From Pseudomonadota bacterium (lineage in GTDB: Bacteria; Desulfobacterota; Desulfobulbia; Desulfobulbales; Desulfocapsaceae), in contig JAHIUA010000098.1 in assembly GCA_018817385.1 (NCBI GenBank), forward strand, positions 124,001-188,000: 64,000 nucleotides of DNA. Direction: 5' to 3'. The notes under the pieces were generated by a model, which was not told where the DNA came from, did not search any database, and worked only from the letters and a program-made list of their open reading frames with translations. Within the stretch, counting starts at the first letter, position 1. Every line of letters begins with the position of its first letter. Positions 32,847 through 59,539 of the stretch are shown here, one piece after another. Position numbers and translations under genes: made by a program.

Positions 32847-33134
32847 TCAACAGCAGCCGGGCATGATCTTGCGTCCCACAAGCCTGTTGACCCATCTGGC
32901 AATAATTTCGGCGGCGCAGCCGACACCAGGGGTGACGTTGATGGCCTGTACCGGGCAATTTTTGGCGCAGGCGCCGCACTCCATACAGGCATCGTGATCT
33001 TCTATGGTTGCCTTATGGTCTTTAACCGTAAAGATACGGTGTGGACAGACGATGACGCAGCTGCCGCAGCCGATACAGGTGTCTCGGTCCAGGCTGAGAG
33101 TGGCCACCTTGTCGATATAACGAAAATTCTCCAT
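32847..33134 (-). CDS. hgcB: HgcB, ferredoxin partner in mercury methylation
   Basis: This 95-residue protein has two 4Fe-4S motifs: C20-x2-C23-x2-C26-x3-C30-P and C50-x2-C53-x2-C56-x3-C60-P. An additional Cys lies at 73 (PGVGCAAEII), and the protein ends in PGCC (Cys94-Cys95). The extra Cys after the second cluster and the C-terminal Cys pair separate HgcB from ordinary ferredoxins. It reduces the corrinoid of HgcA and is thought to help handle Hg(II) through its free cysteines. ATG 33134 lies 17 bases after the hgcA stop, with AAAGAGA as a moderate ribosome site. Position directly after hgcA is the usual arrangement. Confidence 0.93.
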   Translation of the reverse strand: MENFRYIDKVATLSLDRDTCIGCGSCVIVCPHRIFTVKDHKATIEDHDACMECGACAKNCPVQAINVTPGVGCAAEIIARWVNRLVGRKIMPGCC

Positions 33135-33151: not shown

Positions 33152-34345
33152 CTAATTGCTAAAGGGGGCGAATAGCCAGAGGAGCAGGCCCATGGCCGTG
33201 GCAACGGATTGGATTGGAATCCCTCGCCGCATCTCATGTTCGACCCCGGTGGGTGAAGTAAAGGGGGTGGAGCCGGTAAAGTTCATGGCCTGGTAGGAAC
33301 TGAGTGCAGTGATCCAGAAGAGGAGAGCCAGACCTTCAAGCGTGGGCATCTGTCCGGCATATATTCCAAAGCAGGCAAGCCCTCCAGCCAGCCCAGGCCA
33401 TAGGCCCTTGATCCAGAATTGACGCCCAGGCAGCCAGGGCAGGATGAGGGGCACGAGAATGGTTCCGCAGCCGATACCCATCAGGGTGGCAGCCATGAGA
33501 CGGAGTCCTCGGGTCCAGGCAGAGGCAGCTGAGAAGACGGTGGGGCCGATTCCCGAGAGCAGGAGCCCGGCCAGCAAAAAAATGGTCAGCGGCTTCAGAA
33601 GCAAGAAAAGTTCCACTGGGATCAGCACCGCACGTTCTCTGAGGGTAAAGGTCACGGAACGCATGGCCGCATCGGCCTGGTTGTCGTTCTTGAGAAAAGC
33701 CGGCAGGTCACTGCTTCGCACTGGTCCGTAGAGGATCTTGAAGCCGCACTCTTTTTTTACCTGAAAGGCAGCGACACCAGTGGCGCTGAGCTGGGGGAGA
33801 ATCAGGACCCGGTGCTTGAGCAGTTCCTGCAGGTGGCATTGCTGGATACTGGTGAGTATTTCCTGGGTGGAGAAGGTTCCCTTGCCGGCAGCACACCAGA
33901 CATTGATTCCTCGGGTGTCGACTACCAGCAGCCAAGCATCTATGGAGTCCAACTGAAAACGAAGCCCATCAAAGGAGAGCTTGTAGTTGGCGGTAACCAG
34001 CACTGGTGATTCCGGGCCTGGTCTGCCCACTGCGTAGAGGCCAGGAGTAACCTTGTAGTGGTTACGGCCGAGACCGATCCTGGTCAGAATCGTCCCCAAT
34101 CTGTCAGCCGTATCCGGTCGAGAGGCCACTTGCGGTATCGGTCCTATGGAAGTCTGGAGAAAATCGGTGACAAAGGGATGGATGACATAGCCAGCCCGTT
34201 CATGAACCCCGGCCCGGGGTTCGGTTTTTGGGCCTCAGCAAGGGGCATCGTCTGTTGCTGGAGAGGGGGGAGGACACCTTTCGGGGTGTTGTGGCTGCGA
34301 ATATATGGGCAGGAATTGCCTGTTGTTACCGGTAGAGTTCTTCAT
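33152..34345 (-). CDS. hgcA: HgcA, corrinoid mercury methyltransferase with in-frame TGA (candidate selenocysteine)
   Basis: HgcA transfers a methyl group from its corrinoid to Hg(II). The signature cap helix NVWCAAGKG is present, with Cys151 as the lower cobalt ligand. Around it are SPVLVTANYKLSFDGLR, LILPQLSATGVAAF and YGPVRSSDLPAFL. The C-terminal 150 residues form about five membrane helices. The uninterrupted frame starts at a poor GTG (34129), which would cut off GPIPQVASRPDTADRLG, a region I recognise as conserved HgcA N-terminus. The same frame continues upstream to ATG 34345 with AGGGAACT before it. It is crossed by one TGA (34235-34237, codon 37) right after a Cys codon, and a SECIS-like hairpin follows. 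With TGA read as Sec the protein has 397 residues. A sequencing error (TGC to TGA) or real interruption remain possible. Confidence 0.85.
34204..34237 (-). promoter_or_regulatory. hgcA: In-frame TGA codon plus SECIS-like hairpin in hgcA
   Basis: On the mRNA, TGA (34237-34235) follows TGC. After 12 bases comes GAACCCCG-GGC-CGGGGTTC (34222-34204), a perfect 8-base-pair stem with a GGC loop (or 7 pairs with a GGGCC loop). The loop begins 20 bases after the TGA and starts with G. Bacterial SECIS elements have the apical loop about 16-37 bases after the UGA, with a G at the first loop positions and a short stem, so this fits. SelB recognition has not been shown. Confidence 0.6.
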
Positions 34346-34368
34346 AGTTCCCTGTCGAGTAGGCAGGA

Positions 34369-35481: not shown

Positions 35482-36813
35482 TCAATCCTTTCCATGCCTG
35501 TTGATGCGTTGTCCTACTTCTCGCATCTGTGCCAGAATTTTATCTTCATCAAGGGTCAGGAGTCTGCGGCTCTCCATGACTACACGGCCATTGATGACAG
35601 AATGGATCACATCTGCGCCACGGGCAGCATATACCAGGTGTGAGGGGATATTGTAGAGTGGCGTCAGATGGGGTTGGTCCAAGTCAAGGACGATCAAATC
35701 CGCCTTTTTTCCCACGTCGAGGGAACCGATCTGCTCTCCTCCACCAAGCGTTCTGGCTCCGCCCAGGGTCGCAGTATGCAGGGTCTGTTCCGCATTCATG
35801 GCTGTGGGATCCATGCCCGCAACCTTGTGGATCTTGGCCACTGTGTTCATCTCGCCGAACATGTCCACGTCGTTGTTGGAGGCGGCTCCGTCGGTTCCTA
35901 TCCCGACCTTGATCCCGGCCTGGAGCATCTGGACCACGGGTGCGGTTCCGGAAGCGAGTTTCATGTTTGATTCCGGACAGTGGGAAATACAGACTCCACG
36001 GCGGGCCAGGAGCTCGATTTCCGTGTCGTTGAGCATGACGCAGTGGGCTGCCAGGGTCTTTGGGGTGAGCAGACCAAGGTTTTCGAGGTGCTCTACCGGG
36101 GTACAGCCGTATCGGACCCGGCAGCTATTGAGCTCTGCCTCATTTTCCGAGAGGTGAATGACATAGAGACTGTCATTGTCGTGGGCAACAGCGCCTAAGC
36201 GGGTGAGAAGCTCTGGCGAACAGGTATATACCGCGTGTGGATCGGAGGTGATGGAGATTAGGGGGTGGTCCTTGTAGTGGGCAAAGAGGTCAGTGACATA
36301 GGAGAAACCGTTTTCCAGTTCCCCGTAGCAGGGAGAAGGGAAGTCGTAGAGGACCTCGCCAATCCATGCCCGCATACCAGAAATTTCCGTGGCCCGGGCC
36401 ACTTCCTTGGAAAAGAGATACATGTCACAGAAACTGGTCGTTCCGGATTTGATCATCTCGGCAAGGGAGAGGAGGGTGGACTGGTAGACCATATCCGGGG
36501 TCAAGCGGGCTTCCACTGGAAAGATATGTTCTTCAAGCCAGGTCATCAGCGGCAGGTCATCGGCCAGACCCCGGAAGCAGGACATGGCTGCGTGGGTGTG
36601 GGTGTTGACCAGGCCGGGCATGATCAGACCATGATTTGTGTGGATATGCCTGGCCGTGGAATAGTCCGCAAGGATTTGCTCCATCGTGCCGATTCCAGCT
36701 ATCCGGTCAGCACTGATGGCTATGGCACCGTTTTTGATAACCGTGTCCTGGCGGGAGTCGGGAAGGAGATATCTGCCAGAAAGGATAAGGTCTGCGCGTT
36801 GTTGTTGGGTCAT
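35482..36813 (-). CDS. mtaD: 5-methylthioadenosine / S-adenosylhomocysteine deaminase-type amidohydrolase
   Basis: This 443-residue amidohydrolase has the metal-binding HxH in VNTHTHAAMSCFRGLADDLPLMTWLEEHIFP, then HLSENEAE, AHCVMLND, SHCPESNMKLASG and GTDGAASNNDVDMFGEMN. This matches the MTA/SAH deaminase branch rather than guanine or cytosine deaminase. It would convert MTA, SAH or adenosine to the inosine form. The purine nucleoside phosphorylase gene lies directly upstream (50 bases), so the two could act in sequence: deamination, then phosphorolysis. Both follow thrC in one minus-strand run. Confidence 0.88.
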   Translation of the reverse strand: MTQQQRADLILSGRYLLPDSRQDTVIKNGAIAISADRIAGIGTMEQILADYSTARHIHTNHGLIMPGLVNTHTHAAMSCFRGLADDLPLMTWLEEHIFPVEARLTPDMVYQSTLLSLAEMIKSGTTSFCDMYLFSKEVARATEISGMRAWIGEVLYDFPSPCYGELENGFSYVTDLFAHYKDHPLISITSDPHAVYTCSPELLTRLGAVAHDNDSLYVIHLSENEAELNSCRVRYGCTPVEHLENLGLLTPKTLAAHCVMLNDTEIELLARRGVCISHCPESNMKLASGTAPVVQMLQAGIKVGIGTDGAASNNDVDMFGEMNTVAKIHKVAGMDPTAMNAEQTLHTATLGGARTLGGGEQIGSLDVGKKADLIVLDLDQPHLTPLYNIPSHLVYAARGADVIHSVINGRVVMESRRLLTLDEDKILAQMREVGQRINRHGKD

Positions 36814-36863: not shown

Positions 36864-37703
36864 TCAGGTCTTCATCCTATTGACGATCTCCTCGATCAGT
36901 TGCTCCAGTAAGGGTTTCATCGACTCTGCTGTGGCAATAATATCTTCAAGGAGAATGGGCTGGAAGTTTTCAGGATCGTTGACATTGGAGACTGCGGAGA
37001 GGCCAAGGACCTCCATGCCGGCATGCCTGGCGACGATGATCTCAGGGACCGAAGACATTCCGACGGCATCTGCACCACAGTCGCGCAGCCATCTGGTTTC
37101 AGCGGGTGTCTCTAAGCTGGGGCCGGGAATACAGACATAAACACCACTGACCACCTTACTGATCTTGCAATGGCTGGCACTGTCCAGGGCGATTTTGATA
37201 AGTTCAGGATGATACGGGGTGGAGAAGTCGGGAAAACGTGGTCCCCAACTGTCAACGTTGGGTCCGCGCAGGGGATTTTCTCCCAGGAAGTTGAGGTGGT
37301 CCCGCAGCACCATGATGGATCCGGGAAGAAAAAGCGGGTTGAGTCCACCGGCAGCATTGGTGACAAGAAGTGTTTTTGCGCCAAGGAGGGAGAGGACCCT
37401 GATGGGAAAGGCGACTTCTTTGCTGGAATAGCCTTCGTAGGTGTGAAATCGTCCCTGGAGAACAGCTATTTTTTTCCGGCAGAGACGACCAAAGATCAGG
37501 TTCCCGTTGTGACTGTCGACCGTTGATTGGGGAAAATGAGGAATTTCTGAGTAGGGCAGGGTGAGCTCTTGCTCTATCCGATCAGCAAGGCCACCCAGCC
37601 CAGTCCCCAGCTGGATGACCAGATCGGGAGCAAAAGGGATGATGGCCTTTAGAAAGGCCACGCACTCTTCAACCCGGACTTGGTAGTCCCCTCTCTTTTT
37701 CAT
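36864..37703 (-). CDS. Purine nucleoside phosphorylase (trimeric PNP family)
   Basis: This 279-residue protein is of the PNP/MTAP family. Blocks visible are LGTGLGGLADRIEQE for phosphate binding, VLQGRFHTYEGYS, LLVTNAAGGLNPLFLPGSIMVLRDHLNFLGENPLRGPN (near the signature), GVYVCIPGPSLETPAETR and GADAVGMSSVPEIIVARHAGMEVLGLSAVSN. The GMS...E and N in SAVSN residues fit inosine/guanosine specificity. It splits nucleosides to base and ribose-1-phosphate. It lies 11 bases after thrC and 50 bases before mtaD, which supports a purine salvage pair. Confidence 0.9.
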   Translation of the reverse strand: MKKRGDYQVRVEECVAFLKAIIPFAPDLVIQLGTGLGGLADRIEQELTLPYSEIPHFPQSTVDSHNGNLIFGRLCRKKIAVLQGRFHTYEGYSSKEVAFPIRVLSLLGAKTLLVTNAAGGLNPLFLPGSIMVLRDHLNFLGENPLRGPNVDSWGPRFPDFSTPYHPELIKIALDSASHCKISKVVSGVYVCIPGPSLETPAETRWLRDCGADAVGMSSVPEIIVARHAGMEVLGLSAVSNVNDPENFQPILLEDIIATAESMKPLLEQLIEEIVNRMKT

Positions 37704-57988: not shown

Positions 57989-58321
57989 TCAAGGAAGACG
58001 AATCCGTTTGTCCTTCTCCAACTGTGTGTTTTTTTTGTAAAGGAGGATGGTTTTGCCGATGATCTGGACGAGGCTGCTTCCGGTGCCAATTGACAGAGAT
58101 TCAGCAGTCTCCTGGCAAGAAACCGGACTATTTTTTCCAACCTTGATTTTGATCAGTTCATGGCGGCTCAGTTCAAGAGCAGTTGCCTTGACGATTTTCT
58201 CGCCAAGCCCCTCCTTGCCGATAGCAACAACAGGTGTCAGGTCGTGTCCCAATCCCTTGAGAAATTTCTTTTGTTTTGCATTCAATTCGGGAGCTGTTTT
58301 TTTTTCTTCTGATGTTGTCAT
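57989..58321 (-). CDS. yhbY: YhbY-type CRM-domain RNA-binding protein
   Basis: This 110-residue protein has the CRM domain with LNAKQKKFLKGLGHDLTPVVAIGKEGL, LELSRHELIKIKVGKNSP and VQIIGKTILLYKK. YhbY-type proteins associate with the large ribosomal subunit precursor. The N-terminal ten residues are an unusual charged extension. It begins 21 bases after the TraB-family gene. Confidence 0.88.
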   Translation of the reverse strand: MTTSEEKKTAPELNAKQKKFLKGLGHDLTPVVAIGKEGLGEKIVKATALELSRHELIKIKVGKNSPVSCQETAESLSIGTGSSLVQIIGKTILLYKKNTQLEKDKRIRLP

Positions 58322-58342
58322 ATTTGTGTGAGTGACCTCTGG

Positions 58343-59539
58343 TCATCCTATTAGATTTTTAATAATTTCATAGCCTCCGACATAGGTTCCTATAGAGGAT
58401 CCGAGGCCGGTAAAAAGGAAGACAAGGAAGAGACGAAGGAGTTTGTTTTGCCACCATCCTCTTACGGTGCCCATATCATCACCAACGGTTTCAAATTCTT
58501 TAACCACGGGTGGGCAATTCATAACCTGAATAAACGCCGCCACATATCCTGCCCCGATGACAGGCGTCAGGCTGGTGATAGGTGCAGCGGCAAAGGCAGC
58601 TGCTATTGTCAGGGGATGGGCATAAGCGAGCAGACCTCCCAGAGCAGAGGGAATCCCGTTTGCCAATATCCAGTAGAGGAGATTGGATCCCATAACAGCG
58701 GCCCCTTTTTGGATGCCAATGGTGAGAAGAGAACCAATGATCAGGATGGGGATAGACCAGCCTGCAACCTTCCAGGTCGCGGAAATCGGAGGAATGGTTG
58801 AAATATTATCAATCTCTGCGCTATGATCTTCAGGGAAAAGTGCTTTGATTCCTTCCACATGGCCTGCTCCAACCACGGCCACCAGTCGCTTCCCGTTCGC
58901 TGCTTTTATCTTTTCTGAAAGATACAGATCCCGCTCATCAATGATTACCTTTTTGACATCAGGCAAGGAGTTTCCCATCTCACTCATCAGTTCGGAAAGG
59001 ACATCTTTTTGTTTCAATTCGGAAAGTTTTTCTTCACTGAGTTCTGTAGAGTCAAAGAGACTGGCGAAGAGGGTGGCGAGCAGATAACCTTTTTTGAGAA
59101 AGGAGGTGGATTTCCAGGCCCGGCGCAAGGTAATCCGGACATCACGGTCACAGAGGACAATGGGAATGTTATTACTTTTTGCCATGTTGGCGGCGCACAG
59201 TAATTCGGCTCCGGGTTGGACACCCAGCTGGTTGCCCAGCTTCTTTTGATAGGAGGCCATGAGCAGATTAATCATCAGTGTGGCAAGCTGTTTATTTTTG
59301 ATGAGTTGCTTGAGATCAAGGTCCTGCCATTTTTTTTTCTGGGTCAGAGCTTCAAATCGTTTCTCATCAAGTTCAATACAGACACAGTCTGGGTTTTCCT
59401 GTTTGATGACCGTTTCTACGAGATCCACTGACTCTTGCGAGATGTGGGCCGTGCCGATGAGGATAACGGTTTTTTCCTGGTGGGTTATAACATGGACATC
59501 TGCAGGGTAGTCAGATGATGGGAAGGAGTTGTTCGTCAT
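58343..59539 (-). CDS. TraB/PrgY-family membrane protein
   Basis: This 398-residue protein has the TraB domain motifs VILIGTAHISQESVDLVETVI, CVCIELDEKRFEAL, RDLYLSEKIKAA and VAVVGAGHVEGI, followed by a C-terminal region of four or five membrane helices. The enterococcal relative PrgY/TraB reduces pheromone activity. Bacterial family members may be metalloproteases of the Tiki type. The role here is unknown. Confidence 0.85.
   Translation of the reverse strand: MTNNSFPSSDYPADVHVITHQEKTVILIGTAHISQESVDLVETVIKQENPDCVCIELDEKRFEALTQKKKWQDLDLKQLIKNKQLATLMINLLMASYQKKLGNQLGVQPGAELLCAANMAKSNNIPIVLCDRDVRITLRRAWKSTSFLKKGYLLATLFASLFDSTELSEEKLSELKQKDVLSELMSEMGNSLPDVKKVIIDERDLYLSEKIKAANGKRLVAVVGAGHVEGIKALFPEDHSAEIDNISTIPPISATWKVAGWSIPILIIGSLLTIGIQKGAAVMGSNLLYWILANGIPSALGGLLAYAHPLTIAAAFAAAPITSLTPVIGAGYVAAFIQVMNCPPVVKEFETVGDDMGTVRGWWQNKLLRLFLVFLFTGLGSSIGTYVGGYEIIKNLIG

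What the first reader, a model, noticed from the sequence alone, without database searches (positions are those of the whole stretch)
34204..34345. hgcA reads through an in-frame TGA with a SECIS-like hairpin: candidate selenocysteine HgcA
Seen directly: the hgcA frame continues 72 codons upstream of its longest uninterrupted form to an ATG at 34345 with an AGGGA ribosome site, broken only by TGA at 34235-34237. The codon before is TGC (Cys). The stretch between TGA and the GTG at 34129 (YVIHPFVTDFLQTS, GPIPQVASRPDTADRLG) looks like conserved HgcA sequence, so the TGA must be passed. Twelve bases after the TGA is a perfect 8-bp stem with a GGC loop; the loop starts 20 bases after the TGA, inside the 16-37 base range of bacterial SECIS elements and with G first. 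Established: Desulfobacterota are rich in selenoproteins. Inference: Sec at position 37 next to Cys36 forms a Cys-Sec pair in the region before the corrinoid domain. I know of no described selenoprotein form of HgcA. A Sec-Cys pair could bind Hg(II), which has very high affinity for selenolates, or could be redox active.
Basis: partly seen in the sequence, partly recalled or inferred. Interest (0 to 1): 0.92.

Follow-up and report, generated by a model that had tools for sequence, protein, structure and literature searches.

The report
Selenocysteine form of mercury-methylation protein HgcA
The gene for HgcA, the bacterial protein that helps turn mercury into methylmercury, here seems to read a stop codon as the rare amino acid selenocysteine; the comparative signs are very strong, but selenium-containing HgcA had already been predicted in print, so this is one more case of a known kind.

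Summary
The window gene is hgcA followed by hgcB. Its frame runs from an ATG through TGA 34237-34235 into the conserved core. Relatives carry Cys-TGA or Cys-Cys there. Over 310 loci, where the nearest upstream stop is within 40 codons of the core and no start codon lies between, it is TGA in 104 and TAA/TAG in 1; for stops further off it is TGA in 61 of 120. A hairpin behind the TGA exceeds codon-preserving shuffles in 70 thinned Sec forms but not in 78 Cys forms. The genome has selA, selB, selC and selD. Also seen: motifs CU-P, U-C and lone U, and no HgcAB pair with Sec in both proteins (0 of 118 against 19 of 148; only two origins of Sec-HgcB, so not decisive). A role in Hg handling is inference.

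The parts
33152..34345 (-). hgcA read as a selenoprotein: 397 aa, Cys36-Sec37 in an N-terminal tail, then corrinoid-binding domain and transmembrane domain; TAG stop at 33154-33152
   Evidence: (translation with TGA=U), (NCBIfam NF040863 HgcA, 423.9 bits for the long form, cut-off 275)
34235..34237 (-). in-frame TGA, probably decoded as selenocysteine 37
   Evidence: same codon in relatives
34204..34222 (-). SECIS-like hairpin: 8-bp stem GAACCCCG/CGGGGTTC, loop GGC, loop 20 bases after the TGA
   Evidence: similar hairpins behind the TGA of relatives
34349..34353 (-). AGGGA, likely ribosome-binding site of the long form
   Evidence: read
34127..34129 (-). GTG, first start codon after the TGA; a start here would cut off conserved sequence
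   Evidence: the model NF040863 itself begins at residue 70 of the long form
32847..33134 (-). hgcB, dicluster ferredoxin with GVGC (place of Cys73) and C-terminal Cys-Cys
   Evidence: NF040864, 123.8 bits, cut-off 99

Best explanation
hgcA is a selenoprotein gene. SelB with tRNA-Sec reads the TGA at codon 37 as selenocysteine, directed by a hairpin in the mRNA just downstream, giving a 397-residue HgcA with a Cys36-Sec37 pair in its N-terminal tail. Strongly indicated by comparison: the TGA is read through and stands for a Cys of relatives. Inferred: the Cys-Sec pair is a flexible soft-metal ligand that takes Hg(II) and passes it between the HgcB cysteines and the corrinoid, in place of the Cys-Cys pair of other HgcA. 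The confidence given is for the decoding; for the Hg-ligand role alone I would say about 0.5.
For: TGA at the homologous codon: of 210 loci L019-L228, 111 show Cys-TGA (94 distinct sequences), 57 Cys-Cys-Gly (53 distinct), 42 neither; these classes were defined by those motifs. Stop test over all 310 loci: within 40 codons of the core and with no start between, 104 TGA against 1 TAG; beyond 40 codons, 61 TGA against 59 TAA/TAG. Without L321 and L328, which I judged not to be such tails, 102, of which 87 non-redundant. Hairpin: 70 thinned Sec forms average 5.97 bp against 3.44 in codon-preserving shuffles (Wilcoxon p 7e-13; 36 of 70 reach p 0.05 singly); 78 thinned Cys forms 2.46 against 2.29 (p 0.29; 2 of 78). 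Stems differ between lineages. Cys36 is conserved in 90% or more of 49 aligned HgcA: the window plus 48 of 245 eligible loci. Sec machinery in the same genome: selC 75.8 bits, selB 373.1, selA 606.8, two selD over the cut-off, each with one TGA itself. In the family, 44 of 48 genomes with TGA-HgcA have selC; the four without are under 90% complete. The review lists HgcA with motif CU.
Against: No protein-level evidence. The window's hairpin is unexceptional against dinucleotide shuffles. Nine of 70 thinned Sec forms have a stem under 5 bp by my rule, among them the congener L020 (4 bp) and L064 (2 bp). An earlier test on folding energy was weak: mean z -0.39 for Sec, 0.06 for Cys. In 44 of 131 Sec-labelled rows a GTG, TTG or ATG lies between TGA and core, so a later start is not excluded there by the sequence alone. 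The tail before about codon 24 is weakly constrained among four congeners: differences at codon positions 1, 2, 3 are 69, 86, 96. selC does not discriminate: 10 of the 12 family genomes without a TGA in the HgcA match also have it. For the Hg role: of 115 non-Sec rows with GVGC-type HgcB, 26 have no vicinal pair in the last 40 tail residues.
Confidence: 0.93

Rival explanations
1. Translation of HgcA starts after the TGA (GTG 34129 or a non-standard start); the upstream ATG-TGA stretch is a short leader.
For: NF040863 begins only at residue 70 of the long form; about the first 24 codons of the tail are weakly conserved.
Against: A start at the GTG loses the conserved GY..PFV stretch. Relatives carry Cys at the TGA place in an open frame. 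TGA against TAA/TAG is 104 to 1 where no start lies between, but 61 to 59 for stops further off. The hairpin excess goes with TGA and not with Cys.
Confidence: 0.03
2. Sequencing error or pseudogene: the TGA is a broken Cys codon.
For: The window comes from an assembly of 105 contigs.
Against: The same TGA is found in other assemblies, including a complete chromosome (L053, NZ_CP050700.1) and the named strains behind L061 (DSM 28570) and L066 (DSM 18488); the rest of the frame is intact and hgcB follows.
Confidence: 0.01
3. Sec is incorporated, but its role is redox chemistry or selenium-dependent control of HgcA synthesis rather than Hg binding: without selenium the UGA stops translation.
For: Any UGA-Sec gene depends on Sec supply (established knowledge, recalled); nothing here separates these roles.
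Against: A vicinal Cys-Sec pair in a mercury enzyme, and the link of the tail with the state of HgcB, fit metal handling better; neither is proof.
Confidence: 0.35

Closest known systems
Selenoprotein form of HgcA, NF040863 motif CU, as tabulated in PMC13188914 with references 61 and 63 (63 = Haft & Gwadz 2023)
   Same: Same family and same Cys-Sec motif
   Different: Nothing that I could establish for the window gene itself. The 2023 paper is not held, so I do not know which lineages or motif variants it lists
Cys-Cys HgcA of other Desulfobacterota (e.g. L057, L059, L140)
   Same: Same domain order; tail DDDAPCCGPKPGPPSS aligns with DDAPCUGPK
   Different: Cys codon in place of TGA; no hairpin excess in this class
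Sec form of HgcB (GVGU, NF040864 in the same review)
   Same: Selenoprotein in the same two-gene system
   Different: Sec sits at the Cys73 place of HgcB; in my set not found together with Sec-HgcA (0 of 118)
Vicinal-thiol metal carriers such as the C-terminal Cys pair of MerA (analogy made for HgcB in PMC7305189, passages)
   Same: Paired soft ligands on a flexible tail
   Different: No homology claimed or tested; Sec replaces one Cys

Membership tests
HgcA mercury-methylation corrinoid protein | Match to NF040863 over its cut-off | tested here: met
   423.9 bits against 275
HgcA mercury-methylation corrinoid protein | Cap-helix motif with Cys (NVWCAAGK) | tested here: met
   present in the translation; N148, W150 and C151 invariant in 49 sequences; role of the Cys from PMC7305189 (passages)
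HgcA mercury-methylation corrinoid protein | hgcB directly downstream | tested here: met
   NF040864 123.8 bits at 32847-33134
HgcA mercury-methylation corrinoid protein | Mercury methylation activity | not testable with these tools
   no experiment
Bacterial selenoprotein gene | In-frame TGA with Cys homologues at that place | tested here: met
Bacterial selenoprotein gene | SECIS-like hairpin close behind the TGA with G at the start of the loop | tested here: met
   the search rule itself asked for G in the first two loop bases and a loop 15-23 bases after the TGA
Bacterial selenoprotein gene | selA, selB, selC, selD in the genome | tested here: met
Bacterial selenoprotein gene | Selenium in the protein | not testable with these tools
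   needs 75Se labelling or mass spectrometry

The most novel reading that the evidence does not exclude
The HgcAB complex carries at most one selenocysteine in its mercury path, and that residue has moved between places: HgcA tail as Cys-Sec, Sec-Cys or lone Sec, or HgcB at the Cys73 place. Lineages with Sec in HgcB mostly lack the paired thiols of the HgcA tail, so the HgcA tail and HgcB Cys73 would be exchangeable parts of one Hg hand-over route, and methylmercury formation in these lineages would depend on selenium supply.
Probability: 0.3. Interest if true: 0.65.

Novelty: new member of a known kind. Interest (0 to 1): 0.38.

Why it matters
Methylmercury formation rests on HgcAB. If many sulfate reducers make HgcA with selenocysteine, selenium supply may limit or tune methylmercury formation; automatic gene calls may start at the GTG and lose 72 residues with this site (not checked in any annotation); and constructs copied from such calls would lack it. 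Recurrent Cys/Sec exchange marks the N-terminal tail, of which I saw no mutagenesis in the passages read, as a probable functional part.

Tried and rejected
Rejected: downstream start, sequencing error, and TGA as a general sense codon (hgcB and the PilZ gene beside it end in TGA; the homologous residue is Cys). Window-only folding gave no significance. The folding-energy test was weak (mean z -0.39 Sec, 0.06 Cys, Mann-Whitney p 0.004); stem length in the same call separated the classes better, and the refined test is. The independent-pairs test of HgcA-Sec against HgcB-Sec had no power: Sec-HgcB changes only twice on the tree. Other read-through frames in the window: of 18 candidates hgcA was one, 10 others were scanned against Pfam and 7 were not; none of the 10 showed one domain running across a TGA, and 57992-59539 is two neighbouring genes (TraB-like, YhbY).

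Choices and rows dropped. One search kept the best 80 of 579 relatives. I fetched 200 stretches from the matches, leaving out partial and some tail-less ones, so shares of Sec and Cys forms are not population frequencies. For the Sec label I set aside L321, L328, L114, L163, L222, L223, L300, L312, L316, L318 and L322 by eye and counted them as not Sec; L321 and L328 are inside the 104, and L114 was counted as Cys-TGA. Named and unnamed loci overlap; 284 rows are non-redundant. In one search L122 was filed as Cys; one search shows its TGA-Cys tail.

Full report
What was checked. The protein matches NCBIfam HgcA (420.6 bits for the short form; 423.9 for the long form), and hgcB follows at 33134-32847 (123.8 bits). 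The NCBIfam model begins at residue 70 of the long form, so the TGA lies outside it.

The TGA recurs. A family-wide search with the part after the TGA found HgcA in 60 of 93 genomes. Many of the listed matches start at query residue 1 with an open frame of about 356-362 codons, so a stop stands at the same place. Reading the codons upstream in the loci shows Cys-TGA-Gly-Pro in relatives from 80% down to about 43% identity, and DDDAPCCGPKPGPPSS and the like in others. Of the 210 loci L019-L228, 111 show Cys-TGA (94 distinct), 57 Cys-Cys-Gly (53 distinct) and 42 neither; the classes were defined by those motifs. A class-wide search had matches in 140 of 257 genomes and a phylum-wide one in 116 of 395, many with one TGA inside the match, also in other families of the phylum.

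A stop test. For all 310 loci L019-L328 I took the nearest in-frame stop upstream of the core. Where it lay within 40 codons and no ATG, GTG or TTG stood between, it was TGA in 104 loci and TAG in 1 (L116). Where it lay further off, it was TGA in 61 and TAA/TAG in 59; 16 loci had no stop and 3 were too short. The 104 include duplicates of one genome from two collections and two loci (L321, L328) that I later judged not to be such tails; 87 non-redundant loci remain. A leader peptide or random breakage would not choose TGA in this way.

The hairpin. I counted the longest stem whose loop begins 15-23 bases after the TGA, has 3-7 bases, and has G in its first two. Sequences were thinned to under 80% identity and compared with 300 codon-preserving shuffles each. 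The 70 Sec forms (of 131) average 5.97 bp against 3.44; 61 have 5 bp or more; p 7e-13; 36 reach p 0.05 singly. The 78 Cys forms (of 91), measured after a Cys-Cys 8-25 codons before the core, average 2.46 against 2.29; 8 have 5 bp or more; p 0.29; 2 reach p 0.05. Stems differ between lineages (GAACCCCG/CGGGGTTC, GGCTC/GAGCC, CTCCGCC/GGCGGAG), with loops mostly 17-20 bases after the TGA. Thinned rows are still related, so these p-values are too good. Nine Sec rows have under 5 bp. The window's own hairpin has p 0.013 in that test and is unremarkable against dinucleotide shuffles.

Machinery. The window's genome (5.38 Mb, 105 contigs, completeness 100) has selC (75.8 bits), selB (373.1), selA (606.8) and two selD over the cut-off, each itself with one TGA inside. 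In the family, selC was found in 44 of 48 genomes with TGA-HgcA and in 10 of the 12 other genomes with HgcA (searches compared by hand), so the machinery permits the reading but does not discriminate.

What is known. The review PMC13188914 (passages read) lists 'Mercury methylation corrinoid protein HgcA', NF040863, motif CU, with references 61 and 63, and HgcB, NF040864, motif GVGU, with reference 63. Reference 63 is Haft & Gwadz 2023, J Bacteriol e0025922 (not held). Reference 61 seems to be the 2008 ocean-sampling paper PMC2398784, in whose main text four terms for this protein had no hit; I did not read it further. [quoted passage not shown] So the window gene is a further member of a described kind. 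Searches for HgcA or HgcB with selenocysteine or selenoprotein listed no further paper on the point besides these two; searches added none by their listings. In PMC12013277 (passages) the mercury and corrinoid terms had no hit.

What goes beyond the passages I could read. Among the 118 Sec-labelled rows with an hgcB motif, the tail motif is CU-G in 94, CU-P in 14 and CU-A in 1; in 9 more, Sec stands before Cys (TUC 3, SUC 1, GUC 1) or has no Cys beside it (GUS, LUA, GUG, LUG, one each). Of 284 non-redundant rows 131 are labelled Sec and 153 not. On a quick tree of 277 rows the state needs at least 15 changes, but only 5 independent contrasts rest on well-supported branches. HgcB is GVGU in 0 of 118 rows with Sec-HgcA and in 19 of 148 without, but Sec-HgcB has only two origins on the tree, so the exclusion is an observation and not a test. 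A Cys-Cys pair in the HgcA tail is present in 6 of 18 GVGU rows and in 89 of 115 non-Sec rows with GVGC-type HgcB (one row of each kind too short to judge); a second Cys beside HgcB Cys73 (GCGC type) is found in 44 Sec rows and 1 other. These traits are clustered by descent. Whether the 2023 paper reports any of this I cannot tell.

Mechanism. Strongly indicated by comparison: the UGA is read, the residue replaces Cys, and a hairpin follows. Inferred: the pair binds Hg(II) or methylmercury. Published work proposes Hg transfer by HgcB Cys73 and its C-terminal Cys pair, whose mutation cuts methylation (PMC7305189, passages); the link between the state of the HgcA tail and that of HgcB is in line with a shared path. 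Redox use, or selenium-dependent control of HgcA synthesis, remain open.

Noticed in passing
L269, L271, L278, L299, L122: HgcA tails with Sec before Cys (U-C) instead of Cys-Sec; L288, L297, L306, L314, L315 have Sec with no Cys next to it. Stems of 5-8 bp stand behind the TGA in the eight of these ten shown (L271 and L299 were thinned out); for L122, L269 and L297 the single p is above 0.1.
   Followed up: partly
HgcB of L068, L076, L085, L090, L097, L098, L100, L102, L108, L110, L111, L112, L118, L123, L124, L125, L126, L128, L207: In-frame TGA at the Cys73 place of HgcB (GVGU), not found together with Sec-HgcA in this set; L207 is an isolated case in the window's own family.
   Followed up: partly
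L076 and L310, downstream hgcB: A further in-frame TGA in the HgcB C-terminal tail (ASCUDSGCC; PPDUSDGCG) where relatives continue; may be a second Sec or simply a stop.
   Followed up: no
window 35482-36813 and 36864-37703, minus strand: An amidohydrolase resembling MTA/SAH deaminases (the listed NCBIfam matches are under their cut-offs) and a purine nucleoside phosphorylase (over its cut-off) lie a little upstream of hgcAB; of interest because SAM is reported as methyl donor of HgcAB (PMC11588087). Conservation of this neighbourhood was not examined.
   Followed up: no
G003, G034, G044, G045, G053, G057, G074, G084, G085, G086: Two tRNA-Sec genes over the Rfam cut-off in one genome.
   Followed up: no
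L116: The only locus in the stop test with TAG instead of TGA before the HgcA core and no start between; its tail end resembles that of L089, so a frame error is possible.
   Followed up: no
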